This document shows positions 37,581 through 51,251 of a DNA stretch of 64,000 nt, piece by piece. Source of the stretch: Clavibacter sp. A6099 (lineage in GTDB: Bacteria; Actinomycetota; Actinomycetes; Actinomycetales; Microbacteriaceae); assembly GCF_021919125.1 (NCBI RefSeq), contig NZ_CP083439.1:310001-374000 (forward strand), given 5' to 3'. Both the position numbers and the translations under genes were made by a program. Within the stretch, counting starts at the first letter, position 1. Each line of letters opens with the position of its first letter. Below the pieces are notes generated by a model that had not been told where the DNA came from, searched no databases, and saw only the letters and a list, made by a program, of their open reading frames with translations.

Positions 37581-37601
37581 GGGCGGCTGCCGAGGACGGA
37601 G

Positions 37602-37621
37602 ATGTCTGCTCTTCCGGACAA
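37602..37621. promoter_or_regulatory. Candidate PhnF operator upstream of phnD
   Basis: Half-sites ATGTCT and GGACAA are separated by 8 bases. The site and its flank (37603-37623) match the site between phnF and phnG (50326-50346) at 16 of 21 positions with identical half-site spacing. It lies 114 bases before the phnD ATG. Confidence 0.5.
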
Positions 37622-37735
37622 GTTCACGGATCCGCCACCTGACCACCACGGCGGTTCCATCCCGCGTTCCTAGCTTCGAGATCGACCCGCGCATCCCCCT
37701 CACCGCTCGCGGGTACCGACTCGAGAGGCACGTCC

Positions 37736-38707
37736 ATGTCCCTGTCCCCCCGCACCCGCATCGGAGCCCTCGCGGCGTCCGCGCTCGTCGCCGCCCTCGC
37801 GCTGTCCGGCTGCTCCGCCGGCGGCTCCGACGCGTCGGCCGCATCCGCCGACACCTCGGGAACCTGGGCCAAGACCGAGGGCACCCTCGTCTTCGGCGCC
37901 ACGCCCGACCAGGCCGGCTCCGACTCGAACAACAAGCCGCTCGAGGACTACATCGCCAAGGAGACCGGGCTCAAGGTCGAGTACTACCCCACGGCCGACT
38001 ACACCGCGCTCATCGCGGCCGCCGTCGCCGGCAAGATCGACCTGATGAGCTCGGGTGCCCTGCAGTACGTCATGGCCTCGAACAAGGGCGCCGAGATCGA
38101 GCCCGTCGCCGCGGCCCTCACCTCGAAGGACGTCACCGACCCCGGCTACTACTCCGAGGCGATCGTGCCGAAGGGCTCCTCGATCACCGACCTCGCGGGC
38201 GCCAAGGGCAAGACCGTCTGCTTCGTTGACCCGAACTCGACCTCCGGCTTCCTCTTCGGCCTGTACCAGCTGCAGAAGGCGGGCCTCGACGTCACGAGCA
38301 CGGGCTCCGACGCCAACGGCAACCCGCAGTTCGCGGACTTCACGCCCTACTTCGCGGGCGCGCACGACAAGTCGGCGCAGGCCGTCGCATCGGGCCAGTG
38401 CGACGTCGGGTTCGCCGAGGACTCGATCGTCGAGCCCGATGCGGCCGCCGGCAAGCTGACCGTCATCGGCAAGGAGTACGTGCCCGGCGGGCCGCTCTCG
38501 ATCTCGTCGGCTCTGCCGGCCGACGTCAAGGCGAAGCTCACCACGGCGCTCCAGGGCGCGACGCTCGACGCGATCACGGCCTCAGGCGTGCCGCTGACCG
38601 ACGGCTTCACGAAGGGCTACTTCGGCGCCCAGCCGGAGGACGTCTCCTACTACAAGGGCATCGCGGACCTCTGCGACTCCATCGCCGCCGCCAAGTGCGC
38701 GAAGTGA
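37736..38707 (+). CDS. phnD: Phosphonate ABC transporter substrate-binding lipoprotein PhnD
   Basis: A 323-residue lipoprotein with lipobox LSGC (cysteine at residue 26) and a PhnD-type binding domain: LVFGATPDQAGSDSN near the start, DLMSSGALQYVMA, then GKTVCFVDPNSTSGFLFGLYQLQKAG and AVASGQCDVGFAEDS. This family captures phosphonates or phosphite outside the cell. It leads the rightward operon phnD-phnC-phnE-PanE-like. A candidate PhnF operator upstream suggests joint control with the C-P lyase operon that converges on it. The exact ligand is not predictable. Confidence 0.5.
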   Translation: MSLSPRTRIGALAASALVAALALSGCSAGGSDASAASADTSGTWAKTEGTLVFGATPDQAGSDSNNKPLEDYIAKETGLKVEYYPTADYTALIAAAVAGKIDLMSSGALQYVMASNKGAEIEPVAAALTSKDVTDPGYYSEAIVPKGSSITDLAGAKGKTVCFVDPNSTSGFLFGLYQLQKAGLDVTSTGSDANGNPQFADFTPYFAGAHDKSAQAVASGQCDVGFAEDSIVEPDAAAGKLTVIGKEYVPGGPLSISSALPADVKAKLTTALQGATLDAITASGVPLTDGFTKGYFGAQPEDVSYYKGIADLCDSIAAAKCAK

Positions 38708-38728
38708 CCCGGACGGACTGATCCGACC

Positions 38729-39628
38729 ATGACCGGCACCACGACCTCCCCGCTCGTCTCCGTCTCCGGCGTCACCAAGGACTTCGGCGGCACGCGGGCG
38801 CTCCACGACGTCGACCTGACAGTCGAGCGCGGGGAGGTCGTGGTGCTCCTCGGCCTGTCCGGCTCGGGCAAGTCGACCCTCCTCCGGCACCTGGACGGCC
38901 TCGAGCTGCCGACCGCGGGCAGCGTCCGCGTCTTCGACCAGGACGTCGCATCCCTCGGCCAGCAGGACCTCCGCGCCCTGCGCGGCCGGGTGGCGATGAT
39001 CTTCCAGCAGTTCGAGCTCGTGCCCTCGCTGACCGTGCTCGAGAACGTGCTCACGGGCGCGCTCGGCCGCCTCAGTGGCCCGCGCCTCGGCATCTGGACC
39101 TACCCCCGAGCCGCGCGCACCGAGGCGCTCGGCCACCTCGACCGCGTGGGCCTGCTCGAGAAGGCCTACGAGCGGGCCGACCAGCTCTCCGGCGGCCAGC
39201 AGCAGCGCGTCGCGATCGCGCGGGCGCTCATGCAGCGGCCCGAGATCCTGCTCGCGGACGAGCCCGTCGCGAGCCTCGACCCCGAGTCCAGCGAGCAGGT
39301 GATGCGCCTCATCCGCGAGATCGCCGCCGACGACGGCCTCACGGTCGTGTGCAGCCTGCACCAGGTGGACCTCGCGCTCGGCTGGGGCGACCGCATCGTC
39401 GGGCTCCGGCACGGCGAGGTCGTGCTCGACACCCCCACGCGCGGCATCGGCAAGGCCGAGGTGATGGAGATCTACGGCCGCGTGGCGTCGACGACGTCCG
39501 CGCTCGCCGCCATCGCGACCGAGCTCGGCGACGTGCTGCCGCTCGACGAGCCCGTCGGGGTGCGCTCCGTCGGCGCGGTCGGCGACCAGGGCCTCGCCCG
39601 CGGCCGGCGCGCGGACGGCACCCGGTGA
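38729..39628 (+). CDS. phnC: Phosphonate ABC transporter ATP-binding protein PhnC
   Basis: A 299-residue ATPase. Walker A is GLSGSGKSTLLRHL, the signature LSGGQQQRVAIARAL, Walker B ILLADEPVASLDPES, and the switch His lies in CSLHQVDLALGWGDRIVGL. PhnC hallmarks include FQQFELVPSLTVLENVLTGALGR. The C-terminal ~55 residues are an extra Ala/Gly/Arg-rich tail beyond the usual ~250-residue length. It starts 21 bases after phnD, and its stop shares the bases GTGA with the phnE start. Confidence 0.5.
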   Translation: MTGTTTSPLVSVSGVTKDFGGTRALHDVDLTVERGEVVVLLGLSGSGKSTLLRHLDGLELPTAGSVRVFDQDVASLGQQDLRALRGRVAMIFQQFELVPSLTVLENVLTGALGRLSGPRLGIWTYPRAARTEALGHLDRVGLLEKAYERADQLSGGQQQRVAIARALMQRPEILLADEPVASLDPESSEQVMRLIREIAADDGLTVVCSLHQVDLALGWGDRIVGLRHGEVVLDTPTRGIGKAEVMEIYGRVASTTSALAAIATELGDVLPLDEPVGVRSVGAVGDQGLARGRRADGTR

Positions 39629-41373
39629 CCGCTGTCGCCGAGCGCCCGGGCGAGGCCCCGCCCGGCGTCCGACCCGGCGTCGACGAGCGCGCGCCGCGCC
39701 GGCGGCCCGACCGGCAGAAGGCGCTCGCGCTGGTCGTGGTCCTCGCCATGGTCGCCTTCGCGATCCACGCGCTGACGACGCTCGACTTCACCTGGTCGAA
39801 CGTCCTCCGCAGCGTCGGCAACGCCGCGAAGGTGTTCTCGCGCATGGACCCGATCAGCTTCCCGGCGCCCGGCGACCTCGCGTACCTCATCGGGCTGACC
39901 CTCGGGATCGTCGTGCTCGGCACGCTCGCGGCCGCGCTCGTCTCCGTGCCCGTCGCGTACGCGTCCGCGCGCAACACGACGCCGGCGCCGTGGCTGCGCG
40001 GCCTCGGCCGCACGATCGGCGTGGTGACGCGCGCGGTCCCCGACGTGCTGCTCGCCCTCGCGTTCGCGCTCGCCTTCGCCCTCGGGAGCCCGCTGCCCGG
40101 CATCCTCGCCATCGGGATCCACTCGATCGGCATGATCTCGAAGCTCTTCGCCGACGCCATCGAGCAGGTCGACGAGGGGCCGCAGCGCGCGATCCGCACC
40201 ACGGGCGGCACGCGCGCGCAGGAGTTCTGGGCGGGCGTCTTCCCGCAGGTGCTGCCGTCGTGGATCGCCACGGTGCTGCACCGCTTCGACATCAACCTCC
40301 GCGGCTCCGCGATCCTCGGCTACGCCGGCGTGGGCGGGCTCGGCTACGCGATGAAGGTCGCGTTCGGGCAGTTCCCGGAGGGCTACGGCCGCGGGATCGG
40401 CATCGCGATCGTCATCTTCGCGCTGTGCGTGCTGCTGGAGGTCGTGTCGTCGTCCATCCGCCGCAGCGCCCTCGGGGTGCGGCCGGCCGGACGCGGGCTG
40501 GGCGACCGGATCGTGCGGCGCCTCACGCGGGACCGCGCCCTGCCCGAGCGGGCCGGGAGCGCCGGGACCGCGCGCGCCGTGACCGTCGAGTCGATGCAGC
40601 GGCGGCCGTGGACGCCCGACCGGGTGCGCACCGTCGCGTGGTCGGCGCTCGCCGTGGTGGTCATCGTGGGCGGCTACCTCATGGCCGACATCGACCTCGG
40701 CCAGATCACGTGGGAGTACGTCTTCCCCACCTTCCAGAGCTTCTGGCCGCCGAGCACCGGGTCGCACACGTTCGGCGAGTTCGCCGAGGCGCTGCTGGTG
40801 ACGATCCAGGTGGCGTTCGCCGCGGCGCTGCTGTCGGTCGTGCTCGCGCTCGTCGTCGGATCCCTCGCCGCGCGCAACGTCGCGCCGAGCCCCGCCGTGC
40901 GGAACGCCGCGCGCACCGTGCTCGTCGTGTTCCGCGGGGTGCCCGAGCTGGTGCTCGCGATCCTGCTGATCATGATCACCGGGCTCGGCAACCAGGCGGG
41001 CGTCGTGGCGCTCGCGTTCGGCGGCGTCGGGCTCCTCGGCAAGCTCATCGCCGACTCCTTCGAGGAGGTGGGCGCCGGACCCGAGCGCGCCCTCACCGCG
41101 GTCGGCGCGACCCGCGGGCAGCGCTTCCTCGCGGCGACGTGGCCGCAGGGGCTGCCGTCGCTCGTCGGCAACTCGCTCTACCTCGTGGACACGAACATCC
41201 GGGCGGCCACGATCCTCGGCATCGTCGGCGGCAGCGGGATCGGGTTCCACCTGACGAACGCCTCCTCCGTGATGACGCTGCACGGGCAGGTGACGACGCT
41301 CGTGGCGATGGTCTTCGTGAGCGTGCTCGCGGTCGAGGCGCTCGCCGCCTGGCTGCGCCGCGTGTTCCGGTGA
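39625..41373 (+). CDS. phnE: Phosphonate ABC transporter permease, two PhnE domains fused
   Basis: A 582-residue protein from GTG 39625 (overlap with the phnC stop). It contains two complete PhnE-type permease domains, about residues 35-295 and 330-580. Each has the ATPase-contact loop: GIHSIGMISKLFADAIEQVDEGPQRAIRTTG in the first, GGVGLLGKLIADSFEEVGAGPERALTAVG in the second. Each also has a conserved late segment (INLRGSAILGYAGVGGLGY and TNIRAATILGIVGGSGIGF). E. coli PhnE is a single domain that dimerises; here the dimer appears to be made as one chain. About twelve membrane helices are expected. Its stop overlaps the start of the PanE-like gene. Confidence 0.5.
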   Translation: MTAVAERPGEAPPGVRPGVDERAPRRRPDRQKALALVVVLAMVAFAIHALTTLDFTWSNVLRSVGNAAKVFSRMDPISFPAPGDLAYLIGLTLGIVVLGTLAAALVSVPVAYASARNTTPAPWLRGLGRTIGVVTRAVPDVLLALAFALAFALGSPLPGILAIGIHSIGMISKLFADAIEQVDEGPQRAIRTTGGTRAQEFWAGVFPQVLPSWIATVLHRFDINLRGSAILGYAGVGGLGYAMKVAFGQFPEGYGRGIGIAIVIFALCVLLEVVSSSIRRSALGVRPAGRGLGDRIVRRLTRDRALPERAGSAGTARAVTVESMQRRPWTPDRVRTVAWSALAVVVIVGGYLMADIDLGQITWEYVFPTFQSFWPPSTGSHTFGEFAEALLVTIQVAFAAALLSVVLALVVGSLAARNVAPSPAVRNAARTVLVVFRGVPELVLAILLIMITGLGNQAGVVALAFGGVGLLGKLIADSFEEVGAGPERALTAVGATRGQRFLAATWPQGLPSLVGNSLYLVDTNIRAATILGIVGGSGIGFHLTNASSVMTLHGQVTTLVAMVFVSVLAVEALAAWLRRVFR

Positions 41374-42263
41374 CGGCGGACCGACCCGCCGTCGCCGTCG
41401 TCGGGCCGGGCGCGATCGGCACGTCCGTCGCCGCGGCGCTGCACGAGGCGGGGGTGCCCGTCGTCCTCTGCGGGCGCAATGCGCGCGATCGGCTCGTGCT
41501 GGTCGCCGACGACGCGACCGTCGTGGTCCCGGGGCCCGTGCGGACGGATCCGGCGGGGATCAGCGCGCCCGTCGACCTGGTGCTCCTCGCCGTGAAGGCG
41601 ACGCAGGTCGAGGCGGCGGCACCGTGGCTCGCCGCCCTGTGCCACGCGGGCACGGTGGTCGTGGTGCTGCAGAACGGGATCGAGCAGGTCGGGGACGTCG
41701 CGCCGCACGTCCCGGGCTGTCCCGTCGTGCCCGCGGTGGTGTGGTTCCCCGCGGAGGCGCGGGGCGATGGATCCGTGCTCCTCCGCGGCGACCCGCGCCT
41801 CACGCTGCCGGACGTGCCGGCCTCGCGCGTGGCCGTGGACGCGCTCGCCGGCGGGCGGTGCCGGGTCGAGCTCGCGGGCGACTTCCGGACCGTCGCCTGG
41901 CGGAAGCTCGTGCAGAACGCGGTCGCGGGGATCATGGCCGCCACCGGCAGGCGGGCCGGCGTGTTCCTGCGGGACGACGTGGCGACGCTCGCCCGGGCCT
42001 ACGCGCGCGAGTGCCTCGATGTCGCTCGCGCCGAGGGCGCCGTGCTCGACGATGACGTGGCCGACCGGATCGTGGACGACTTCGCCGCGGCCCCCGCCGA
42101 CCAGGGCACCTCGATCCTCGCCGACCGGGAGGCGGGCCGGCCGCTCGAGTGGGAGGCGCGCAACGGCGTGATCCTGCGCCGGGCCAGGGCGCACGGCCTG
42201 CCCACGCCGATCGGCGACGTCCTCGTGCCGCTGCTGGCGGCGGCGGGCGACGGACCCGGCTGA
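41370..42263 (+). CDS. 2-dehydropantoate 2-reductase (PanE/ketopantoate reductase) family protein
   Basis: A 297-residue protein from GTG 41370, sharing GTGA with phnE. The N-terminal NADP-binding loop AVVGPGAIGTSVAAAL (residues 8-23), DLVLLAVKATQVEAA and VVVLQNGIEQ are ApbA/PanE hallmarks. The C-terminal helical domain has RTVAWRKLVQNAVAGIMAATG with the catalytic lysine region. The tight coupling to phosphonate transporter genes suggests reduction of a keto-phosphonate or of a phosphonate breakdown product more than pantothenate synthesis, but this is inference from position only. It is the last gene before the converging C-P lyase operon, 21 bases away. Confidence 0.5.
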   Translation: MTADRPAVAVVGPGAIGTSVAAALHEAGVPVVLCGRNARDRLVLVADDATVVVPGPVRTDPAGISAPVDLVLLAVKATQVEAAAPWLAALCHAGTVVVVLQNGIEQVGDVAPHVPGCPVVPAVVWFPAEARGDGSVLLRGDPRLTLPDVPASRVAVDALAGGRCRVELAGDFRTVAWRKLVQNAVAGIMAATGRRAGVFLRDDVATLARAYARECLDVARAEGAVLDDDVADRIVDDFAAAPADQGTSILADREAGRPLEWEARNGVILRRARAHGLPTPIGDVLVPLLAAAGDGPG

Positions 42264-42284
42264 GCCCGAGCCCGTCGCGACGCC

Positions 42285-42902
42285 TCAGCCCTCGTACCGC
42301 TCCAGGAACGCCTCCGTCGGCAGCGCGCGGAAGTCGTCCAGGCGCGCGCGGAGGGTCGCGTGGTCCCAGTCCCACCAGGCGAGCAGGCGCAGGCGCGCGG
42401 CGATCTCCGGCGGCTGGCGGAAGCGGATCACGGTGGCGGGGACGCCCGCGACGATCGCGTAGTCCGGCACGTCGCGCGTGACGACGGCGCCCGACGCGAC
42501 GACGGCGCCGTCCCCGACGCGCACGCCCGGCTTGATCATGGCGCCGTGCCCGATCCAGGTGTCGTGCCCGATGGAGGTGCGGCGCGAGCGGCGGTGCTCG
42601 AAGAACTCCGCGTCGTCCTCGACGTCGTCCCAGTACATGGTGCTGCGGTACATGAAGTGGTGCAGCGTCGCGCGGTCGAGCGGGTGGTCGGTGGCGCCGA
42701 CGCGCACGGCGCTCGCGATGTTCGAGAAGCGGCCCACGTCGGTGTGCGCGAAGTCGCAGAGGCGGTCGCAGTAGCTGTAGTCGCCGATCACGGTGTCGAG
42801 CAGGCGCGTGCTCGCGCCGATCTGGGTCCAGCGGCCGAGCTCGCTGCCGGACATCACGACGTCGGGGCCGATCAGGGGCTCCTCGGTGAGCTTCGCGGTC
42901 AT
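42285..42902 (-). CDS. Phosphonate-associated hexapeptide-repeat acetyltransferase
   Basis: A 205-residue left-handed beta-helix transferase. Hexapeptide-type repeats are visible through [37 protein letters not shown] and [31 protein letters not shown] (in overlapping pieces). The pattern [22 protein letters not shown] is typical of the transferase family found next to phn genes. It may acetylate aminoalkylphosphonates, helping their breakdown as PhnO does in E. coli; the substrate is inferred. The ATG at 42902 overlaps the phnN stop, and this is the last gene of the leftward phn operon. Confidence 0.5.
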
Positions 42903-43630
42903 GGGTTCTCCGTCCGTCCGCGGCGCGCGGGGTCGATGGGGTGGGGGAGCGGCGAGGCGGTCGGTGCGGAGGCGGCCGGCGCGGATCCGGCCTGTGCCGA
43001 TCCGGCCAGGGCGGACGCGCGGGCCGCCCGGATGGCGCGGAGCAGGGCCACGCCGCCCTCGGCGACCGTGCCGTGGTTCCGCACCTCGTGGTCGGCCAGC
43101 CTGTCGGGCGCCGGATCCGCGCGGGCGAGCCGCCGGGCGATGTCGTCGGCGGCCTCTCGTCCGCGCTCCCGGAGCCGGGCGGCGCGAACGTCCTCGGACA
43201 CCGTGATCCGCACCACGACCAGCCGGGCATAGCGCGCCTGGAGCACCTCGAGCATGCTGCGGGAGACGTTCGCGACCACGGCCGCGCCCGCGCGGACGGC
43301 GTCGTCGGCCGTGGCGGGGATCCCGTAGGAGAGGCCGTGCGCGCGCCAGGTCACGGCGTAGTCGCCTCGCGCGGCCGCCGCGGCGAACTCCTCGTCGCCG
43401 ACGGCGTCGAAGTCCTCGCCGGGCCCGGGCGGGCGGGTGATGGCGCGGCGGGGGAAGTGCGCGTCCGGTCCGCTGCGCGCACGGGCGGCGCCGAGCAGCG
43501 CGTCCTTGCCGACCCCGCTCGCGCCGACGACGGCGACGAACGGGCCGGGGCCCAGGGGAGCGGGAGCGGGAGCGGGAGCGGCCGGAGAGGCAGCGGCTGG
43601 AGCGGAGCCCGCGGGGACGGCGTCGCTCAC
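42899..43630 (-). CDS. phnN: Ribose 1,5-bisphosphate phosphokinase PhnN
   Basis: A 243-residue kinase from GTG 43630 (GTGA overlap with phnM). After a ~30-residue Ala/Pro-rich leader, the P-loop is G36-A-S-G-V-G-K42-D, followed by [24 protein letters not shown], the guanylate-kinase-like motif typical of PhnN, and [24 protein letters not shown]. PhnN converts ribose 1,5-bisphosphate to PRPP, the last step of the C-P lyase route. A ~45-residue low-complexity C-terminal tail (repeats of GSA/ASAP) is unusual. The stop is shared with the acetyltransferase ATG. Confidence 0.5.
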
Positions 43631-44808
43631 GACACCCGCGCTCCCCGGAGGTGCACGCCGCGGACGACGGGCACGGTGCGGCCGCCGGGGTGCCGCTCGC
43701 TCGCGGGCACGACGTGGCGGTGCACGCGCACGAGGTCGGCGCGCGCGCCCACGCGGATCGCGCCACGGTCGTCGAGCCCGACCGCCCGGGCCGGGTCGCC
43801 GCTGACGAGCCGCACGCCGCGTGTGAGGGGCAGGATCCCGTCGGCGTCGAGCTGCACGATCGCCTGCAGCGGGCTCGCGGGGACGTAGTCGGAGGAGAGC
43901 ACGTCGAGCAGGCCGAGCGCGAGCAGCTCGGCGGCCGCGACGTTGCCGGACTGGCTGCCGCCGCGCACGATGTTCGGCGCGCCCATGACGATCAGCTGCC
44001 CGTGCTCGCGGGCGGCGCGCGCGGCGACCTCGGTGGTCGGGAACTCGGAGATGCGCACCCCGAGCGCCGCGGACTCCTCGACGTGCGCGACCGTGGCGTC
44101 GTCGTGGGCCGCGAGCGTCACGCCGCGCGCGGTGGCGAGCTCGGCGATGGCGATGCGGTTGGGCGTCGAGTGCTCCGCGGCGACGGCCTGCAGCTCCTCC
44201 ATGAGGGCGCCGATCCCGGCCTGGGACACGCGTCCGCGGCCCACCATGTAGCGCGAGAAGGCCTCGACGTCCGCGTACTGGCGCTGCCCGGGCGTGTGGT
44301 CCATGAGGGAGGCCAGGCGCACCGACGCGATGCGGTCGAACTCGCGGAACTCGGCGGCCGTGTCCGGCGCCGCGACCTCGCAGCGCAGGTGGATGAGGTG
44401 CTCCGCGCGCAGCAGCCCGGCGGCCACGGCGTGCTCGATGGCCTCCGCGAGCGAGAGGGACAGCGTGGTGGCGTCGTCGCGGCCCTCGAGGGTGCCGATG
44501 CGGATCGCGTCGAAGACCGTGGTGACGCCGGCGCCGCTCAGCTGGGCGTCGTGCGCGAGGACGGCGGGGATCGGGTCCCAGCGCGTGCCCGGGCGGGGCT
44601 GCGCGTGCGACTCGAGGTGGTCGGTGTGCAGCTCGACGAGGCCGGGGATCAGCAGGTCGCCGTCGAGGTCGTCGCCGATGCCGCCGACCTCGCCGACGGT
44701 GCCGGGGGAGATGTCGGCGACGAGGCCGTCGCGGATCAGGACGGATCCGTGCAGCACCTCGTCGTCGAGGACGATGCGGGCGTTGCGGAGGACGGTCTCG
44801 CGGCTCAT
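43627..44808 (-). CDS. phnM: Alpha-D-ribose 1-methylphosphonate 5-triphosphate diphosphatase PhnM
   Basis: A 393-residue amidohydrolase-superfamily enzyme. The metal site starts with [13 protein letters not shown] (H61 and H64), followed by a long conserved stretch [32 protein letters not shown] and a late aspartate region [13 protein letters not shown]. It removes pyrophosphate from ribose 1-methylphosphonate 5-triphosphate before the PhnJ step. The ATG at 44808 overlaps the stop of the 2H phosphoesterase gene. Length and motifs are those of a normal PhnM. Confidence 0.5.
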
Positions 44809-45620
44809 CGGGGTCCTTCGGGTTCGGGCGCCGGGGTGGCGCGGGGGTGGGGCGGGGTGCGGGGGTCGTGCGAGGTGTCATCGAGCGTGGCGCGGGGGTG
44901 GGGCGGGGTGTCGGGGTGGAGCGGGTGGACGGAGCGCAGGCGGAACGGGGCGCCGGGGGCGTCCTCGATCAGGAGGGCGAGGGCGTCGACGGCGACCGGC
45001 CGGTCCGTCCCGTCGGCGAACCAGGCGGCCAGTGCGGCCTCGGCGCGGGGGCGGTCGGCGGTCGGGATCCGGTCGGTGAGGGTCAGGTGGAAGCGGAACC
45101 GGTCGAGCACGTGCGGGTAGCCCCAGGTCTCGAGGAGCTCGCGCTGCCGCGGGCTGAGGGAGGCGGGATCCCGGCGGGCGGTCTCCGCGTCGGTCGGGGG
45201 CGCGCGGAACCCGTCGAGCCGCATGACGACGTCGGCGGCGAGCGCGTCCAGCGCGGGGACCGGCCCCGTCGGCACGAGCGCGAGGAAGCCGCCGAGCGAG
45301 GCGACCCGGAGGCCGGGCAGCACGACGGGGTCGCGGGAGCCCGCGAGCTCGGCGACCGCGGCCTCGAGCTCGTCGACGTCGCGCCCGTCGGCGAGGCGGA
45401 AGGGCGCCTTGAGCGTCCCGTGGAAGCCGTAGCGCCGGGCGTCGATCGTGATCGCGTCGACCTCGGCGCGCGTCCAGCCGGCGGGCGCTCTTGGCTCGGG
45501 TGCCGCGGATCCGCCGACCACGGACCGCCCGAGCCACGACTCGGCGCGCTCCCGCAGCAGCATCCCGACGGGGTCGTCCGAGCCGATCCCGGGGATGGCG
45601 TAGACCGCGACGCGGGTCAT
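44805..45620 (-). CDS. 2H phosphoesterase-type phosphonate metabolism protein (DUF1045)
   Basis: A 271-residue protein. Two HxT motifs of the 2H phosphoesterase superfamily are visible: H67-G-T69-L in YGFHGTLKAPF and H178-L-T180-L in FRFHLTLTDR. This fits DUF1045, a family tied to phn operons. E. coli uses PhnP to open the cyclic phosphodiester left after C-P cleavage. No phnP is seen here, so this protein is a candidate for that or a related phosphodiester step (inference). The C-terminal ~40 residues are a Pro/His-rich tail with a repeated segment TPPHPRAT. The ATG at 45620 overlaps the phnL stop and its own stop overlaps phnM. Confidence 0.5.
   Translation of the reverse strand: MTRVAVYAIPGIGSDDPVGMLLRERAESWLGRSVVGGSAAPEPRAPAGWTRAEVDAITIDARRYGFHGTLKAPFRLADGRDVDELEAAVAELAGSRDPVVLPGLRVASLGGFLALVPTGPVPALDALAADVVMRLDGFRAPPTDAETARRDPASLSPRQRELLETWGYPHVLDRFRFHLTLTDRIPTADRPRAEAALAAWFADGTDRPVAVDALALLIEDAPGAPFRLRSVHPLHPDTPPHPRATLDDTSHDPRTPPHPRATPAPEPEGPR
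44836..44910 (-). repeat. 24-bp direct repeat in the tail of the 2H phosphoesterase gene
   Basis: Bases 44836-44859 and 44887-44910 are identical and 51 bases apart (17 codons), so the encoded PHPRAT-type segment is repeated in frame. Confidence 0.5.
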
Positions 45621-46375
45621 CGGGCGGCCACCGCGACGGCCGGCACGAACGCCTCCACGTCCACGGCCCGGTCGGCGACCGCGGCCCGCACCTCGGCGTC
45701 GTGGAAGATCCCGAGCATGCCGACGCCGGCGGCGCGCTTCTCGGCGATCAGCTCGACCACGACGTCGCGGTTGCGGGCGTCGAGCGACGCGGTCGGCTCG
45801 TCGAGGAGGAGCAGGGGCAGCTCCGGCAGGAACCCGCGCGCCACGTTCACGCGCTGCTGCTCGCCGCCCGAGAAGGTCGCGGGCGGCAGCGACCACAGCC
45901 GCTCCGGGATCGACAGCCGCGTGAGGATGCGCGCGGCCCGGTCGCGCGCGTCCACCGCGTCGACGCCGCGCTCGACGAGCGGCTCGGCCACCACGTCGAG
46001 CGTGCCGACGCGCGGGACGCAGCGGAGGAACTGGCTCACGTAGCCGACCGCGTCGCGGCGGGCGGCGAGGACGGCGCGCGGCGGGGCGGTCGCCATGTCG
46101 ACGTCGCCGCCCGGAGCGTGCACCACGATGCGGCCGCGGTCGGCGAGGTAGTTGCCGTAGACGAGCTTCAGGACCGTGGACTTCCCGGCCCCGGAGGCGC
46201 CGCCGAGGACGACGGCCTCGGCGCGGCCGACGACGAAGGAGAGGCCGTCCAGCACGGCGAGCCGCTGGCCGCCCTGCAGGTGCATCGTGAAGGTCTTGCC
46301 CACCCCGTCGACGGTGAGGATCGGGGCGGTCGCGGGCACGGGTCCGGGGGTGCTTCCGGTCATGGGGCGGATCAT
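45617..46375 (-). CDS. phnL: Phosphonate C-P lyase system protein PhnL
   Basis: A 252-residue ABC-type ATPase. Walker A is GGASGAGKSTVLKL, the signature FSGGEQQRVNVARG and Walker B LLLLDEPTASLD, with GIFHDAEVR at the switch position. PhnL-specific wording includes KTFTMHLQGGQRLAVLDGLSF and YVSQFLRCVPRVGTLDVVAEPL. It is thought to act with the C-P lyase core complex and not as a transporter part. The ATG at 46375 overlaps the phnK stop; an ATG four codons later is an alternative. The stop overlaps the DUF1045 start. Confidence 0.5.
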   Translation of the reverse strand: MIRPMTGSTPGPVPATAPILTVDGVGKTFTMHLQGGQRLAVLDGLSFVVGRAEAVVLGGASGAGKSTVLKLVYGNYLADRGRIVVHAPGGDVDMATAPPRAVLAARRDAVGYVSQFLRCVPRVGTLDVVAEPLVERGVDAVDARDRAARILTRLSIPERLWSLPPATFSGGEQQRVNVARGFLPELPLLLLDEPTASLDARNRDVVVELIAEKRAAGVGMLGIFHDAEVRAAVADRAVDVEAFVPAVAVAAR

Positions 46376-47154
46376 CCTTGCAGGATCGAGGAGACGAGCA
46401 GCTGGGTGTAGGCGGCCTGCGGGTCGTCGAGGACCCGGTCGGTGAGGCCGGACTCGATGACGCGGCCGTCCTTCATCACGAGCGTGCGATGCGAGATGAG
46501 GCGGGCGACGGCGAGGTCGTGGGTGACGATGACGACCGCGAGGCCGAGCTCCGCGACGAGGCCGCGGATGAGGTCGAGCAGGCGCGCCTGCACGGAGACG
46601 TCGAGGCCGCTCGTGGGCTCGTCCATGAAGACGAGCCGCGGCGAGACGACGAGGTTCCTGGCGATCTGCAGCCGCTGCCGCATGCCGCCGGAGAACGTCG
46701 TCGGGTGGTCGTCGATGCGGTCGACGGGGATCTCCACGTGCCGCAGCCACTCGGCCGCCGTCTCGCGGATCCGCCCGTAGTGCCGCCACCCGTTCGTCAT
46801 GAGCGGCTCGCCGACGTTGCCGCCCGCGCTCACGTGCATGCGCAGGCCGTCGGCCGGATCCTGGTGCACGAAGCCCCACTCGCTCCGCCACAGCCGGCGC
46901 ACGGCGCTCTCGGACAGCTCGGCGAGCTCCACGACCTCGCCGTCGGCCAGCCGGTAGCGGATGCTGCCCTCGCTGAGCGCGAGCCGCTGGGACAGGGTGC
47001 CGAGCAGGGTCGACTTCCCGGATCCCGACTCGCCCACCACCGCGAGCACCTCGCCCGGGTGGAGGTCGAGGTCGACGTCGCGGCAGCCGTAGCGGTCGCC
47101 GTAGCGGTGGGCGGCCCCGCGGACCTCGAGCAGCGGTCGGTCGTCGTCGCTCAT
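46372..47154 (-). CDS. phnK: Phosphonate C-P lyase system protein PhnK
   Basis: A 260-residue ABC-type ATPase. Walker A is GESGSGKSTLLGTL, the signature FSGGMRQRLQIARN, Walker B LVFMDEPTSGLDVS and the switch His lies in IVTHDLAVARL. The phrase WGFVHQDPADGLRMHVSAGGNVGEPLM is characteristic of PhnK. In E. coli PhnK binds the PhnGHIJ core complex. It overlaps phnJ (ATGA) and phnL on either side. Confidence 0.5.
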   Translation of the reverse strand: MSDDDRPLLEVRGAAHRYGDRYGCRDVDLDLHPGEVLAVVGESGSGKSTLLGTLSQRLALSEGSIRYRLADGEVVELAELSESAVRRLWRSEWGFVHQDPADGLRMHVSAGGNVGEPLMTNGWRHYGRIRETAAEWLRHVEIPVDRIDDHPTTFSGGMRQRLQIARNLVVSPRLVFMDEPTSGLDVSVQARLLDLIRGLVAELGLAVVIVTHDLAVARLISHRTLVMKDGRVIESGLTDRVLDDPQAAYTQLLVSSILQG

Positions 47155-48020
47155 GCGCGCGCCTCCTCGTCGTGGGCGCGGGCGGCCTCGACCGTGCGCT
47201 CGCAGTGGTCGGTGTCGGAGCAGACGTGCATCGACGCGCCCCGGTCGTCGGTGATGACCTCGTCGAGGTACACGCCCGTGGATCCGCAGATCGCGCACGG
47301 GTCCTCGAAGGACTGCGGCTCGAACGGGTGGTCCTCGAAGCCGAGGCTCTCGACGCTCGTGTACGGCGGCACCGCGTAGATGCGCTTCTCGCGGCCGGCG
47401 CCGAACAGCTGCAGCGCCGGGCTCATGTGCATCTTCGGGTTGTCGAAGCTCGGGACGGGGGACGGCGCCATCAGGTACCGGCCGGCGACCATCACGGGGT
47501 AGTCGTACGTCTTGGCGACGTGCCCGTAGCGCGCGATGTCCTCGTAGAGCTTCACGTACATCAGCCCGTACTCCTCGAGCGCGTGCAGGCGCCGGGTCTC
47601 CGTCTCGCGGGGCTCGAGGAAGCGCAGCGGCTCCGGCATGGGCACCTGGTAGACGACGACCTGGCCCTCGGCGAGCGGGGTCTCGGGGATCCGGTGCCGG
47701 GTCTGGATCACGGTGGCCTCGTCGGTGCGCGTGGTGGTCGCGACGCCGGCGACGGAGGCGAAGAACTGCCGGATGGAGACGGCGTTCGTGGTGTCGTCCG
47801 CGCCCTGGTCGATGACCTTCAGCACGTCGTCCTCGCCGATCACGGCCGCCGTGACCTGCACGCCGCCCGTGCCCCAGCCGCGCGGCATGGGCACCTCGCG
47901 GCTCGCGAACGGCACCTGGAAGCCGGGGATCGCGACGGCCTTGAGGAGCGCGCGGCGGATCATGCGCTTGGTCTGCTCGTCGAGGTAGCCGAGGTTGTAG
48001 CCGATGAGGGAGGCGCTCAT
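47151..48020 (-). CDS. phnJ: Alpha-D-ribose 1-methylphosphonate 5-phosphate C-P lyase PhnJ
   Basis: A 289-residue radical-SAM-type enzyme that cleaves the carbon-phosphorus bond. The cluster cysteines are C242, C245, C267 and C273 (CAIC, then CSDTDHC), matching the spacing known for PhnJ. The conserved AIPGFQVPFASREVPMPRGWG segment holds G33, equivalent to the glycine reported as the radical site. All key residues are present, so the enzyme should be active. It is coupled to phnI (4-base overlap) and phnK. Confidence 0.5.
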   Translation of the reverse strand: MSASLIGYNLGYLDEQTKRMIRRALLKAVAIPGFQVPFASREVPMPRGWGTGGVQVTAAVIGEDDVLKVIDQGADDTTNAVSIRQFFASVAGVATTTRTDEATVIQTRHRIPETPLAEGQVVVYQVPMPEPLRFLEPRETETRRLHALEEYGLMYVKLYEDIARYGHVAKTYDYPVMVAGRYLMAPSPVPSFDNPKMHMSPALQLFGAGREKRIYAVPPYTSVESLGFEDHPFEPQSFEDPCAICGSTGVYLDEVITDDRGASMHVCSDTDHCERTVEAARAHDEEARA

Positions 48021-49171
48021 GCGCGGGCCCCCGCTCCGGCCGGGACGGCGGTGGGCGCGGCGTCGGTCGCGGCGTCGGTCGCGTCGGCCGGCGACGCCTC
48101 CGGCGCCTCCTGCCGCTCGCGCCACTCGCGGGCCAGCCGACGCACGAGCACGAGCTCGGCCTGGAAGTCCACGTAGTGCGGGAGCTTGAGGTGCTCGACG
48201 AACCCGGTCGCCTGCACGTTGTCGCAGTGGCTGATCACGAACTCCTCGTCCTGCGCGGGGGCGGTCACGCGCTCGCCGAGCTCGTCGGCGCGGAGGGCCC
48301 GGTCGACGAGCGCCATCGACATCGCCTTGCGCTCGCTGCGCCCGAAGGCGAGCCCGTAGCCGCGGGTGAACTGGGCCGGCCGGTCGGCGCTGCCCGTGAA
48401 CTGGTTGACCATCTGGCACTCGGTGACCTCGATCCGGCCGAGCGGCACCGCGAAGCCGAGCTCGGGGGCGTCGATCTCCACCTCGACCTCGCCGACGCGG
48501 ATCTCGCCCGCGAACGGGTGCGTCGTGCCGAAGCCGCGCTGCGTGGAGTAGCCGAGGCCGAGCAGGAAGCCCTCGTCGCCGCGGGCCAGGGCCTGCAGGC
48601 GCTCGGCGCGCGTCATCGGGTGGACGGTGGGCTCGCGCGTGATGTCGGCGGGCTCCTCGTCGTCCTGTCCGGGGTGCGAGTCGGGCTCGATGAGCGCGCT
48701 CTGGCCGAGGAGGTCGGCCACGCGCGGCATGGTGGCGCCCGCGTCGGCCGCGCGCGACGTCACCGCGGCCGGCTCGGCGTCGGTGAAGAGGCGGTGCGTG
48801 TAGTCGAAGGTCGCGCCGAGCTGCTGGCCGCCCGGCAGGTCCTTGAACGTCGCGGAGACGCGGCGCTGGGGCGGGAGCCCGGCGGTGTCGACCGGCAGCG
48901 TGTACCCGAAGCGCGGGAGCGTCGTGCGGTACGAGCGCAGCAGGGTGACGGCCTCGAGCACGTCGCCCTGCGCCTGGATGAGGGCGCGTGCGGCGAGCTC
49001 CGGGTCGTGCAGCGAGCCCTCGGTCATCACGCGGGAGACGAGGACGCCCAGCTGGCCGGTGACCTGGCCGGCCTCGATGCGAGCGGATCCGGGGGCGCCC
49101 CGGCCCTCGGCGGCGAGCAGGGCGTGCGCGGCGGCGATCGCCTTCTCCCCGCCCTTGACGGCGACGTACAT
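48017..49171 (-). CDS. phnI: Carbon-phosphorus lyase complex subunit PhnI
   Basis: A 384-residue protein of normal PhnI length plus an Ala/Thr-rich tail. MYVAVKGGEKAI at the start, QVTGQLGVLVSRVMTEGSL, TLPRFGYTLPVD, LLGLGYSTQRGFGTTHPFAGEIR and HVKLPHY-like EHLKLPHYVDFQAEL are family hallmarks. PhnI displaces the base of a nucleoside triphosphate with the phosphonate, giving the ribose phosphonate triphosphate, with help from PhnG, H and L. The ATG at 49171 shares one base with the phnH stop (TGATG). Confidence 0.5.
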   Translation of the reverse strand: MYVAVKGGEKAIAAAHALLAAEGRGAPGSARIEAGQVTGQLGVLVSRVMTEGSLHDPELAARALIQAQGDVLEAVTLLRSYRTTLPRFGYTLPVDTAGLPPQRRVSATFKDLPGGQQLGATFDYTHRLFTDAEPAAVTSRAADAGATMPRVADLLGQSALIEPDSHPGQDDEEPADITREPTVHPMTRAERLQALARGDEGFLLGLGYSTQRGFGTTHPFAGEIRVGEVEVEIDAPELGFAVPLGRIEVTECQMVNQFTGSADRPAQFTRGYGLAFGRSERKAMSMALVDRALRADELGERVTAPAQDEEFVISHCDNVQATGFVEHLKLPHYVDFQAELVLVRRLAREWRERQEAPEASPADATDAATDAAPTAVPAGAGARA

Positions 49172-49818
49172 CAGGACTCCGATCGGGGGTCGGCCGCCCG
49201 GAGGCGGGTGGTGCGGGGGAGGGCGGCGACGGATACCGCGTCGACGAGCAGGAGGTCGACGCCGCGCGGGAAGCGCTCGCCGTTGGCCCGCCAGGCGTCG
49301 AGGAACGCGTCGTCGGCCCAGGGGGCGTCGGCGATCGCGTGGCCGTCGATGCCGGGGCCCTCGGCCAGGATCCGCACGGTGCCGGCGGCGTCGCGGACGT
49401 CGAGGAGCGCGGTCGCGGAGCGGTGCGGCTCCTCGTCGGTGCCGGCGGCGAGCTCCGCGAGCGGGGGCAGGGACGCCGGGTCGGCGAGCACGAAGTCCGC
49501 GTCCGAGGCCGCGGTGACGAGGCGCACGCCCGTGTGGAAGGTGAGCCAGGAGGTCACCTCGGCGTCGGCCGCGCGACGCGGGTCGAGCCACAGCGCCGAC
49601 TCCTCGTCGAGCACGGTGAGCGCGACGGCGCCGAGCCCCGGGCCGAGACCGGCGGGCGCCTCGGCGGGGCCCGTGAGCGGGTGGATCCGCGTCGGGTGCG
49701 CGAGCGCGTCGAGGAGCGCGCGGAACGCGGCCTGCGCGCCGCGGGTCGCGTCGCCGAACCCCGGAGCGGGGATGCCGGGCGCGGGGACGCCGGGCGCGCG
49801 GCCCGTCGCCGCGGTCAC
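49171..49818 (-). CDS. phnH: Carbon-phosphorus lyase complex subunit PhnH
   Basis: A 215-residue protein from GTG 49818, overlapping the phnG stop (GTGA). Family features are FRALLDALAHPTRIHPL near the start, ALTVLDEESALWLDP, WLTFHTGVRLV and GPGIDGHAIADAP. PhnH forms part of the PhnGHIJ core complex with a structural role. A proline-rich leader (APGVPAPGIPAPGFGDATRG) precedes the family domain. Confidence 0.5.
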   Translation of the reverse strand: MTAATGRAPGVPAPGIPAPGFGDATRGAQAAFRALLDALAHPTRIHPLTGPAEAPAGLGPGLGAVALTVLDEESALWLDPRRAADAEVTSWLTFHTGVRLVTAASDADFVLADPASLPPLAELAAGTDEEPHRSATALLDVRDAAGTVRILAEGPGIDGHAIADAPWADDAFLDAWRANGERFPRGVDLLLVDAVSVAALPRTTRLRAADPRSES

Positions 49819-50306
49819 CCGTTCTCCCGGGCGACCGTGAAGAAGTCCACGAGCGTGCTGCGGGCCTCGGCGGCGCGGACGTCGTCCGCCTCGGCGCGTG
49901 CGCGCTCCAGCGGCGAGACGACCTCGGCGAGCACGCGGTCGTGCAGGCCCGCGTCGAGGAGCATCCCGTCGAACAGGGCGGCGAGGCGGGCGTGCTCGAG
50001 GTCGGATCCGAGGACGTAGGAGCTGCCGAGGGCGTCCGCCGCCATGGCCGGCCCGTGCAGGCGGAGCGTGGCGCGCGTGACGGTGGCCTCGCCGAGGTTG
50101 AAGCGCGCGCCGCCGGCGTCGACGCGGCCGCGCACCATGACGAGCCCGGCCTCGGGGCCGCGGATGTGCTGCACCTCGGGCTTGGGCTCCCAGGCGGTCC
50201 ACGCGGCGTCGAGCGCGCCGACGTCGGCGGCGGAGAGGACGCGCATCCAGCGCTGCCGGGCGGCGACGTCCCCCCGTCCGGTGCTGCTGGTCGTGGTCGT
50301 CGTCAT
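49815..50306 (-). CDS. phnG: Carbon-phosphorus lyase complex subunit PhnG
   Basis: A 163-residue protein and the first gene of the leftward operon. RQRWMRVLSAADVGAL near the start, LVMVRGRVDAGGARFNLGEATVTRATLRL and SSYVLGSDLEHARLAALFDGML are PhnG hallmarks. The ATG at 50306 is preceded by ggaggg at a spacing of 8 bases. A candidate PhnF operator begins 18 bases upstream of the start codon. The operon it opens runs through all C-P lyase core and accessory genes with 1- to 4-base overlaps. Confidence 0.5.
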   Translation of the reverse strand: MTTTTTSSTGRGDVAARQRWMRVLSAADVGALDAAWTAWEPKPEVQHIRGPEAGLVMVRGRVDAGGARFNLGEATVTRATLRLHGPAMAADALGSSYVLGSDLEHARLAALFDGMLLDAGLHDRVLAEVVSPLERARAEADDVRAAEARSTLVDFFTVARENG

Positions 50307-50324
50307 GGCCGCGATCCCTCCAAG

Positions 50325-50344
50325 TTGTCTGCTGATCTAGATAA
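50325..50344. promoter_or_regulatory. Candidate PhnF operator between phnG and phnF
   Basis: TTGTCT-N8-AGATAA is an inverted repeat (one mismatch between arms) lying between the divergent phnG and phnF starts. A related, equally spaced site lies before phnD (37602-37621). Overlapping it is CTGATCTAGATAAG (50332-50345), itself nearly palindromic, so the exact contact bases remain open. Confidence 0.5.
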
Positions 50345-50513
50345 GTCGAACCTAGCGGCCGACGGCAGGCCGGAACCCGCCCGCGCGCGACGAGTCGGAC
50401 GCGAGCAGGTGAACAGGTGGGGAACGCGGGCGGGGGCCGGGCGGGCGGTGGGCCGGGGATCCGCGACCGCGACCGCATCCGTCGCCGCGACCGCCCGGTA
50501 GGGTCGAAGGGAC

Positions 50514-51251
50514 ATGGCGACGCAGAGCAGATCCACGAGCGGGTACTCCGCCTGGCGGCTCATCGCGGAGGAGCTGCGCGCCGAGATCCTGCAGGGCACC
50601 GTGCCGGCCGGGGCGAAGCTCTCGTCGGAGAGCGAGCTCGCCGAGCGCTTCGAGGTCCACCGGCACACCGTGCGCCAGGCCGTCGCGGCCCTCGCGACGG
50701 ACGGGCTCGTCGTCTCGCGGCGCGGCAGCGGCACGTTCGTGACCGCGCACGACGTCATCGTCCACCGCATCGGCCTGCGCACGCGGCTCGGCGACAGCCT
50801 CGCCGGCCGCGGATCCGCGTCCACGGGCGAGCTGCTCGAGTGGGCCGTCGAGGATCCGCCCGCCGACGTCGCCGAGCGCCTCGCCCTCGCCGGCCGCCCC
50901 GCCCTGCGGCTCGAGACGCTGCGGCTCGTCGACGGCCGGCCCGTGGTGCGCGGCACGTCGTGGCTCGTGGAGGAGCTCGTGCCCGGGATCGTCGAGCGCT
51001 ACGGACCCGACGGGTCGATGACGAACGCCCTGCGCGCGGTAGGCGTCGACGACTACCTGCGCTCCGCGACCACCGTCACCGGCCGCCTCGCGACGGCCGC
51101 CGAGTCCGCGGAGCTGCAGCTGCCGTCGGGCGCGGTCGTGCTGGTGGTCCGCGCCCTCAACACCCTGCCCGACGGCACGCCGCTGCTCATCAATGTCACG
51201 CGCTTCGCGGCCGACCGCGTCGAGCTCGACGTGGAGCACAGCAGGGCCTAG
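50514..51251 (+). CDS. phnF: Phosphonate operon regulator PhnF (GntR/HutC family)
   Basis: A 245-residue regulator. The N-terminal winged helix has LSSESELAERFEVHRHTVRQAVAALATDGLVVSRRGSGTFV (read in two parts), typical of GntR. The C-terminal UTRA domain starts near residue 85 and ends VLVVRALNTLPDGTPLLINVTRFAADRVEL, matching PhnF proteins. It is divergent from the C-P lyase operon and probably represses it when phosphate is ample. A TAGGGT box (50499-50504) lies 9 bases before the ATG; a gaaggga ribosome-binding-like stretch lies in between. Confidence 0.5.
   Translation: MATQSRSTSGYSAWRLIAEELRAEILQGTVPAGAKLSSESELAERFEVHRHTVRQAVAALATDGLVVSRRGSGTFVTAHDVIVHRIGLRTRLGDSLAGRGSASTGELLEWAVEDPPADVAERLALAGRPALRLETLRLVDGRPVVRGTSWLVEELVPGIVERYGPDGSMTNALRAVGVDDYLRSATTVTGRLATAAESAELQLPSGAVVLVVRALNTLPDGTPLLINVTRFAADRVELDVEHSRA

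What the first reader, a model, noticed from the sequence alone, without database searches (positions are those of the whole stretch)
37602..50346. Shared operator links phosphonate uptake and C-P lyase operons
An inverted repeat TTGTCT-N8-AGATAA (50325-50344) sits between phnF and phnG. A site with the same half-site spacing (ATGTCT-N8-GGACAA, 37602-37621) sits before phnD, 12.7 kb away. Over 21 positions the two agree at 16. The match by eye is seen in the sequence. PhnF as the binding protein is inferred from GntR/HutC family knowledge. This would define a two-operon PhnF regulon in this lineage with a motif that may differ from the mycobacterial one.
Basis: partly seen in the sequence, partly recalled or inferred. 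Interest (0 to 1): 0.7.

Follow-up and report, generated by a model that had tools for sequence, protein, structure and literature searches.

The report
Paired repressor sites for phosphonate genes
The same DNA docking site, most likely for the repressor PhnF, sits in front of both the phosphonate-uptake genes and the phosphonate-breaking genes of a plant-associated bacterium, and it is a stretched version of the site seen beside the same repressor in other bacteria.

Summary
A 26-bp matrix trained only on phnG-side sites outside Clavibacter ranks them first (29.0) and second (12.9) in the window; third is 1.2. The phnG-side site is strong: present in 21 of 21 actinobacterial loci with a divergent phnF, before phnG in 0 of 5 without. 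The phnD-side site is weak by sequence alone: 2 of 399,500 background positions score as high. Its position rescues it: kept in 9 of 9 Clavibacter phnD orthologues, it starts 72 bp before a -10-like hexamer, as in seven other genera. A two-operon PhnF regulon is thus well supported by comparison; binding is untested. New detail: with the same half-sites, the actinobacterial operator is 8 bp longer (GT-N12-AC) than the compact one of most proteobacterial PhnF loci examined. At phnG it abuts the -10-like element; at phnD in Clavibacter it overlaps a candidate PHO box. Whether one stretched dimer or two overlapping dimers bind is open. New variant of a known kind.

The parts
50322..50347 (.). phnG-side operator (26 bp): AAGTTGTCTGCTGATCTAGATAAGTC on +, matrix score 29.0
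   Evidence: Top hit of the window with a matrix that holds no Clavibacter site; kept in the 9 Clavibacter phnG promoter rows aligned (8 distinct genomes: L011 and L102 are the same contig) and in G015; present in 21 of 21 phnF-bearing actinobacterial loci
37599..37624 (.). phnD-side operator (26 bp): GAGATGTCTGCTCTTCCGGACAAGTT on +, matrix score 12.9
   Evidence: Second hit of the window; 23 of 26 columns invariant in 9 Clavibacter genomes, against 2 of 30 columns just upstream and 28 of 46 downstream (whose frame is shifted by one base); same 72-bp distance to a -10-like hexamer as in seven other genera
50349..50354 (-). candidate -10 element TAGGTT of the phnG promoter, 1 bp from the operator
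   Evidence: TAnnnT ends 1-2 bp before the 26-mer in 19 of 21 loci
37671..37676 (+). candidate -10 element TAGCTT of the phnD promoter, 72 bp from operator start
   Evidence: TAnnnT at +72 in 16 of 18 phnD promoters (9 of 9 Clavibacter, 7 of 9 others), +73 in one, none in Gordonia
50404..50425 (-). candidate PHO box, two 11-nt units GTTCCCCACCT GTTCACCTGCT
   Evidence: Only hit of GTTCAC-N5-GTTCA with 1 mismatch in the window, but 28 of 100 shuffles have one too; GTTC[AC][CT] occurs within 90 bp upstream of the operator in 19 of 21 loci, at 67-69 bp in 15 and at 77-80 bp in 11
37622..37643 (+). candidate PHO box GTTCACGGATC CGCCACCTGAC, overlapping the phnD operator by 3 bp; second unit degenerate
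   Evidence: Sequence; GTTCAC at this place in 9 of 9 Clavibacter promoters, but GTTCA[CT] in only 2 of 9 other genomes (L144, L148)
50514..51251 (+). phnF, GntR/HutC-type regulator
   Evidence: TIGR02325 231.2 bits, cut-off 156.8; GntR and UTRA domains
49815..50306 (-). phnG, first gene of the C-P lyase operon
   Evidence: PF06754
42285..49764 (-). rest of the C-P lyase operon: phnH, phnI, phnJ, phnK, phnL, DUF1045/TIGR03223 gene, phnM, hexapeptide transferase (TIGR03308); gene starts not refined
   Evidence: Pfam and NCBIfam matches
37736..38707 (+). phnD-type substrate-binding protein
   Evidence: PF12974, TIGR01098; below the TIGR03431 PhnD equivalog cut-off (137.5 against 261.1)
38729..39628 (+). 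phnC, ATP-binding protein
   Evidence: TIGR02315 292.3 bits, cut-off 266.1
39715..41373 (+). two PhnE permease domains in one reading frame (start not determined; first domain from about 39715)
   Evidence: TIGR01097, two stretches in ORF 39349-41373

Best explanation
PhnF, encoded divergently from phnG, binds a 26-bp operator before phnG and a weaker copy before phnD, and so couples phosphonate uptake (phnDCE) with the C-P lyase operon (phnGHIJKLM and accessory genes). Shown by sequence comparison: both sites, their conservation, their fixed places in the two promoters, and the link with phnF. Inferred: PhnF is the binder, and a repressor released by a phosphonate or a breakdown product (HutC-family knowledge). 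Proposed mechanism: at phnG the operator starts 1-2 bp after the -10-like element, so bound PhnF blocks RNA polymerase at the start site. At phnD it is centred about 59 bp upstream of the -10-like element and, in Clavibacter, overlaps a candidate PHO box, so bound PhnF may keep off the phosphate-starvation activator PhoP. Phosphonate genes would then need both phosphate hunger and an inducer. The operator is an actinobacterial variant: the same outer half-sites as the proteobacterial PhnF site (AAGTTGTCT...AGACAACTT), moved 8 bp apart.
For: In 26 actinobacterial loci, 21 of 21 with divergent phnF have a site of 25.9 or more; 0 of 5 without one have it before phnG. phnD side: 9 of 22 phnD-like rows in 20 genomes have a site of 15.5-35.8 just upstream of phnD, and all 9 Clavibacter orthologues carry one (6.8-15.3). 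Operator start to TAnnnT is 72 bp in 16 of 18 phnD promoters, although the 46-bp spacer is only 0.42 identical on average between nine genomes. A score of 12.9 or more at one given position has a background rate of about 5e-6. 12 of 12 genomes searched with model R1 had hits at E<=1; 14 of 15 distinct places are phn promoters. Half-sites agree in both phyla, and so does the helix-turn-helix stretch V(H/N)R(H/N)TxR of PhnF.
Against: No binding or expression data. The phnD-side site scores low in Clavibacter, 6.8 in two genomes, and 2 of 399,500 background positions score 12.9 or more, some 17 per genome. Model R1 found no phnD-side site in 18 Clavibacter genomes and only one of the six that the matrix finds in the 12 genomes, where often only 150 of up to 500 candidates were scored; it also missed the phnG-side site of G015, which the matrix scores 27.7. 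Two Pseudofrankia phnD genes (58-62% identical) and the 11 other phnD-like rows below about 52% lack a site (best 9.5). 16 of the 21 co-occurrence loci gave sites to the matrix, and L030 and L033 share the sequence of one of them; only the three Clavibacter loci are independent. The PHO boxes are judged by consensus; outside Clavibacter GTTCA[CT] overlaps the phnD operator in only 2 of 9 genomes, which weakens the PhoP-blocking step. An activating role of PhnF at phnD is not excluded.
Confidence: 0.78

Rival explanations
1. Two overlapping compact operators. The 20-bp core is two 12-bp HutC sites offset by 8 bp, each bound by a PhnF dimer; in most actinobacteria the inner half-sites have decayed and the outer ones are kept. 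(A refinement of the best explanation: the binder is the same, the stoichiometry differs.)
For: Two betaproteobacterial MAG loci (L062, L063) have TTGTGTAGAYGTCTATACAA, and a locus of another actinobacterial family with a PhnF over the cut-off (L187, neighbours judged by eye) has TTGTCTAGACGTCTGTACAA: both compact sites complete. On the phnG side the inner partner of H1 matches 4.32 of 6 on average, H1 4.86, H3 5.5. PMC4494728 (passages and one section read) reports extra half-sites 7-12 nt from the centre in this family; PMC8012715 (passages, abstract among them) reports three NanR dimers side by side.
Against: The other inner half-site matches only 2.23 of 6 on the phnG side, and the two inner ones 2.89 and 3.0 of 6 on the phnD side; the key C of the inner half is variable.
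Confidence: 0.45
2. One PhnF dimer spans the stretched palindrome, its DNA-binding domains held further apart, perhaps by the longer linker of actinobacterial PhnF. (Also a refinement of the best explanation.)
For: Outer halves are the best kept; spacing 8 is best in 20 of 21 actinobacterial loci (one a tie), spacing 0 best or tied in 17 of 18 proteobacterial ones (5 ties). 21 of 21 actinobacterial PhnF aligned have one more linker residue than 17 of 17 proteobacterial ones (L030 and L087 were not aligned). Large domain movements are reported for this family (PMC4918961, passages).
Against: Eight more base pairs add about 27 A and three quarters of a turn (my estimate). Linker length is confounded with phylogeny, and L062/L063 have a short linker with an offset-8 double site.
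Confidence: 0.35
3. The phnD-side site is a chance match or part of the PHO box, and only the C-P lyase operon is under PhnF.
For: Low score, background hits as high, right half overlaps GTTCAC, no hit with R1 in the genus.
Against: Conserved in 9 of 9, same 72-bp geometry as sites in seven other genera, and 0 of 200 column-shuffled matrices reached 12.9 in the 300 bp before phnD (best 6.1).
Confidence: 0.1
4. The inverted repeat acts as an RNA hairpin in the 5' leader of phnG, not as a DNA site.
For: AAGTTGTCTA...TAGACAACTT could form a 10-bp stem; 83.2% of cells pair, a value reached by 20 of 500 shuffles.
Against: Pair 6-21 is not formed in 12 of 22 sequences; 59 of 500 shuffles reach the covariation score and 224 of 500 the number of two-sided changes. 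The phnD-side copy lies upstream of the candidate promoter.
Confidence: 0.03

Closest known systems
PhnF (TIGR02325) and its compact operator in proteobacterial phnF-phnG divergons
   Same: Equivalog family, divergent phnF-phnG layout, half-sites AAGTTGTCT/AGACAACTT, helix-turn-helix stretch
   Different: Most proteobacterial operators examined are GT-N4-AC, the actinobacterial ones GT-N12-AC, and the latter also precede a separate phnD operon
Mycobacterium smegmatis PhnF / phnDCE (PMC7866108, passages read; primary papers not held)
   Same: A GntR repressor of phnDCE, said to bind two sequences in a divergent promoter region
   Different: The passages describe no C-P lyase operon under it; the protein matches this PhnF with 48.0 bits, less than YvoA (52.9); its motif is recalled as TGGTATAGACCA, from no call
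HutC-subfamily operators (NagR/DasR dre-sites; survey PMC4494728)
   Same: GntR/HutC domains, palindromic sites around GT...AC
   Different: The survey states that GT and AC are mostly 4 nt apart, with FarR, NagQ and SdhR among the exceptions; here 12
NanR (GGTATA)3 operator (PMC8012715)
   Same: GntR-family dimers packed side by side on closely spaced half-sites
   Different: Direct repeats and a 32-residue N-terminal extension; FadR-type by recall

Membership tests
PhnF (TIGR02325) | Score over the curated equivalog cut-off | tested here: met
   231.2 against 156.8 bits; 8 of 8 relatives submitted, 4 of each phylum, also pass
PhnF (TIGR02325) | Next to C-P lyase genes | tested here: met
   phnG to phnM on the other strand
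GntR/HutC subfamily | GntR DNA-binding domain plus UTRA domain | tested here: met
   PF00392 and PF07702
Canonical HutC operator | GT and AC 4 nt apart | tested here: not met
   Spacing 8 between 9-bp arms (GT-N12-AC) best in 20 of 21 actinobacterial loci, one of them a tie; L018 fits the compact form better by one match
PhnF operator | Bound by PhnF | not testable with these tools
   Needs gel shift or footprint
Pho regulon | PhoP-bound PHO box of 11-nt direct repeats | tested here: inconclusive
   GTTC[AC][CT] in 19 of 21 phnG promoters; beside the phnD operator in 9 of 9 Clavibacter but GTTCA[CT] in 2 of 9 others; 11-nt repeat layout from PMC7866108, letters recalled, no model used, binding untested

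The most novel reading that the evidence does not exclude
One orthologous repressor has changed operator length by 8 bp between phyla while keeping its half-sites, through an intermediate with two complete overlapping 12-bp sites; the actinobacterial form is read either by two dimers or by one stretched dimer with a longer linker, and works by two different routes: blocking the start site at phnG, and blocking PhoP at phnD.
Probability: 0.33. Interest if true: 0.6.

Novelty: new variant of a known kind. Interest (0 to 1): 0.47.

Why it matters
It turns a by-eye match into a defined regulon for phosphonate use in actinobacteria, whose members include reported degraders of phosphonates such as glyphosate (PMC7866108, passages). 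It also offers a case of an orthologous repressor whose half-sites stay constant while operator spacing shifts by 8 bp, with candidate intermediates. In the held library I found no paper describing this operator. RegPrecise itself, supplementary files (including the regulon tables of PMC4494728) and most subscription journals could not be searched; PMC5299692 (passage read) says that comparison with RegPrecise gave a PhnF regulon for a pseudomonad.

Tried and rejected
Genome-wide uniqueness as proof: rejected, since 2-mismatch pattern hits and the reversed control are alike in number and two background sites outscore the phnD-side site. RNA hairpin: disfavoured. Model R1 as a genome-wide finder: too insensitive for phnD-side sites. 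Literature: eight searches, none listing a paper on an actinobacterial C-P lyase PhnF operator that I could see. The one R1 hit outside phn promoters (Sinomonas, G407:C32:231631, matrix 21.2) was looked at only through its open frames, by eye; two weaker R1 hits in the genus (G013:C10, G005:C3, E 4.7 and 5.9) and the background site of 17.9 (L183:3160) were not followed. The E. coli phn region was fetched and not used. The phylum search with TIGR02325 (2 of 396 genomes over the cut-off, G000 and G591) gave one useful locus, L187. A structure model of PhnF could not be had: the machine was busy three times.
Full report
Setting. The window lies in a 3.33-Mb Clavibacter genome (window = G000:C1:310001-374000; PhnG 93-94% identical to that of named Clavibacter records). 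It holds a C-P lyase operon on the minus strand (phnG to phnM with accessory genes), phnF divergent from phnG, and a phnDCE operon on the plus strand 12.7 kb away.

Observation. Both sites exist as described, 16 of 21 positions agreeing in the best register. By pattern alone they are not exceptional.

The phnG-side site. Upstream sequences of phnG from 26 actinobacterial loci show one motif, consensus AAGTTATCTAGATAACTAGACAACTT (22 sites). The 21 loci with a divergent phnF (49% identity or more) have it in 21 of 21. The 5 others (L024, L026, L027, L031, L034) do not have it before phnG; L027 and L034 show a 13.1 hit 1.7-1.8 kb upstream, and L026 has a GntR-family gene of 31% identity beside phnG. 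Sixteen of the 21 loci gave sites to the matrix and two more share such a sequence; the three Clavibacter loci did not, and score 25.9 to 26.2. The window's own site scores 29.0, above every one of 399,500 background positions (best 17.9).

The phnD-side site. With the same matrix it scores 12.9, second in the window, but two background positions score higher (14.6 and 17.9), so sequence alone would not carry the claim. Three further results do. First, in 9 of 9 Clavibacter phnD orthologues, the window's included, it is among the best conserved stretches of the upstream region, while three Clavibacter with a phnD only about 46% identical lack it. Second, phnD was sought in 20 phnF-bearing genomes (19 with a match, 22 rows). 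Scanning upstream showed sites of 15.5 to 35.8 in nine rows, all at about 52% identity or more; the other 13 rows, including two Pseudofrankia at 58-62%, had none above 9.5. Third, the distance from operator start to a TAnnnT hexamer is 72 bp in 16 of 18 promoters and 73 in one, with none in Gordonia, while the spacer itself is poorly conserved (0.42 mean pairwise identity among nine genomes). A score of this height at one given position has a background rate of about 5 in a million.

Promoter anatomy. At phnG a TAnnnT ends 1-2 bp before the 26-mer in 19 of 21 loci; its frequency in the own-genome sample is about 0.0004 per position. PHO-box-like GTTC[AC][CT] units lie further up in 19 of 21, at 67-69 bp from the operator in 15. 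At phnD a GTTCAC unit overlaps the operator's 3' end by 3 bp in the window and in the other Clavibacter; outside the genus GTTCA[CT] stands there in 2 of 9 genomes, with looser forms in some. From this I infer start-site blocking at phnG and, less surely, interference with PhoP at phnD. An activating role of PhnF at phnD, from roughly -70, is not excluded.

Operator length. Arms AAGTTGTCT and AGACAACTT were placed at gaps of 0 to 16 bp. Actinobacteria: gap 8 best in 20 of 21 (one a tie), gap 0 in one (L018). Proteobacteria with divergent phnF (18 of the 54 other loci): gap 0 best in 12 and tied in 5; L057 had no good site. The regulators submitted are equivalogs in both groups (8 of 8) and share the stretch V(H/N)R(H/N)TxR, which I take to be the recognition helix. 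The actinobacterial ones carry one extra linker residue (21 of 21 against 0 of 17), which is confounded with descent. L062, L063 and L187 carry two complete compact sites offset by 8 bp, a possible intermediate. Three loci (L017, L019, L022) carry two phnG operators 47 bp apart.

Specificity. Model R1 in 12 genomes gave 15 distinct places at E<=1: 13 phnF-phnG, one phnD, one unrelated (the genome of L028 was not held, and in most genomes only 150 first-look candidates were scored). In 18 Clavibacter genomes it gave the phnG-side place in 8 and two weak hits elsewhere, missed the site of G015, and found no phnD-side site. So at high score the operator is largely confined to phn promoters, but weak copies cannot be told from background without context.

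Known or new. PMC4494728 (passages and one section read) puts GT and AC mostly 4 nt apart in HutC sites and names PhnF once in its main text, without an operator; its supplementary tables could not be read. PMC7866108 (passages) describes the M. smegmatis phnFDCE system, and separate phnDCE and phnF-phnN clusters in Arthrobacter, without operators in what I saw. PMC10574752 and PMC7735965 (passages) call PhnF a repressor. I found no description of this operator in the searches named. The regulator and the idea of a PhnF regulon are known; the stretched operator, the two-promoter geometry and the phylum split look new. Verdict: new variant of a known kind.

Noticed in passing
window 39349-41373 (+): Two PhnE permease domains in one open reading frame (TIGR01097, two stretches): a fused or tandem PhnE.
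   Followed up: no
window 39990-42263 (+), domains in its 3' part: A ketopantoate-reductase-like gene (PF02558/PF08546) follows phnE.
   Followed up: no
L017:9928 and 9975; L019:9893 and 9940; L022:4602 and 4649: Two phnG operators exactly 47 bp apart in three loci.
   Followed up: partly
L062, L063 phnF-phnG intergenic; L187:1454-1479: Operators made of two complete compact HutC sites offset by 8 bp.
   Followed up: partly
L024, L026, L027, L031, L034: Actinobacterial phnG operons without a divergent phnF (L026 has only a 31% GntR-family gene beside phnG) and without the operator, with GTTCAC-like boxes by eye.
   Followed up: no
L050, L066, L085 phnF-phnG intergenic: Gap 11 ties with gap 0: the compact site seems to be followed by a further half-site.
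   Followed up: no
L183:3160-3185 (G000:C1 near 2653160): Palindrome GTGTCGTCCACAGGTGTGGACAACTC scores 17.9, above the phnD-side site.
   Followed up: no
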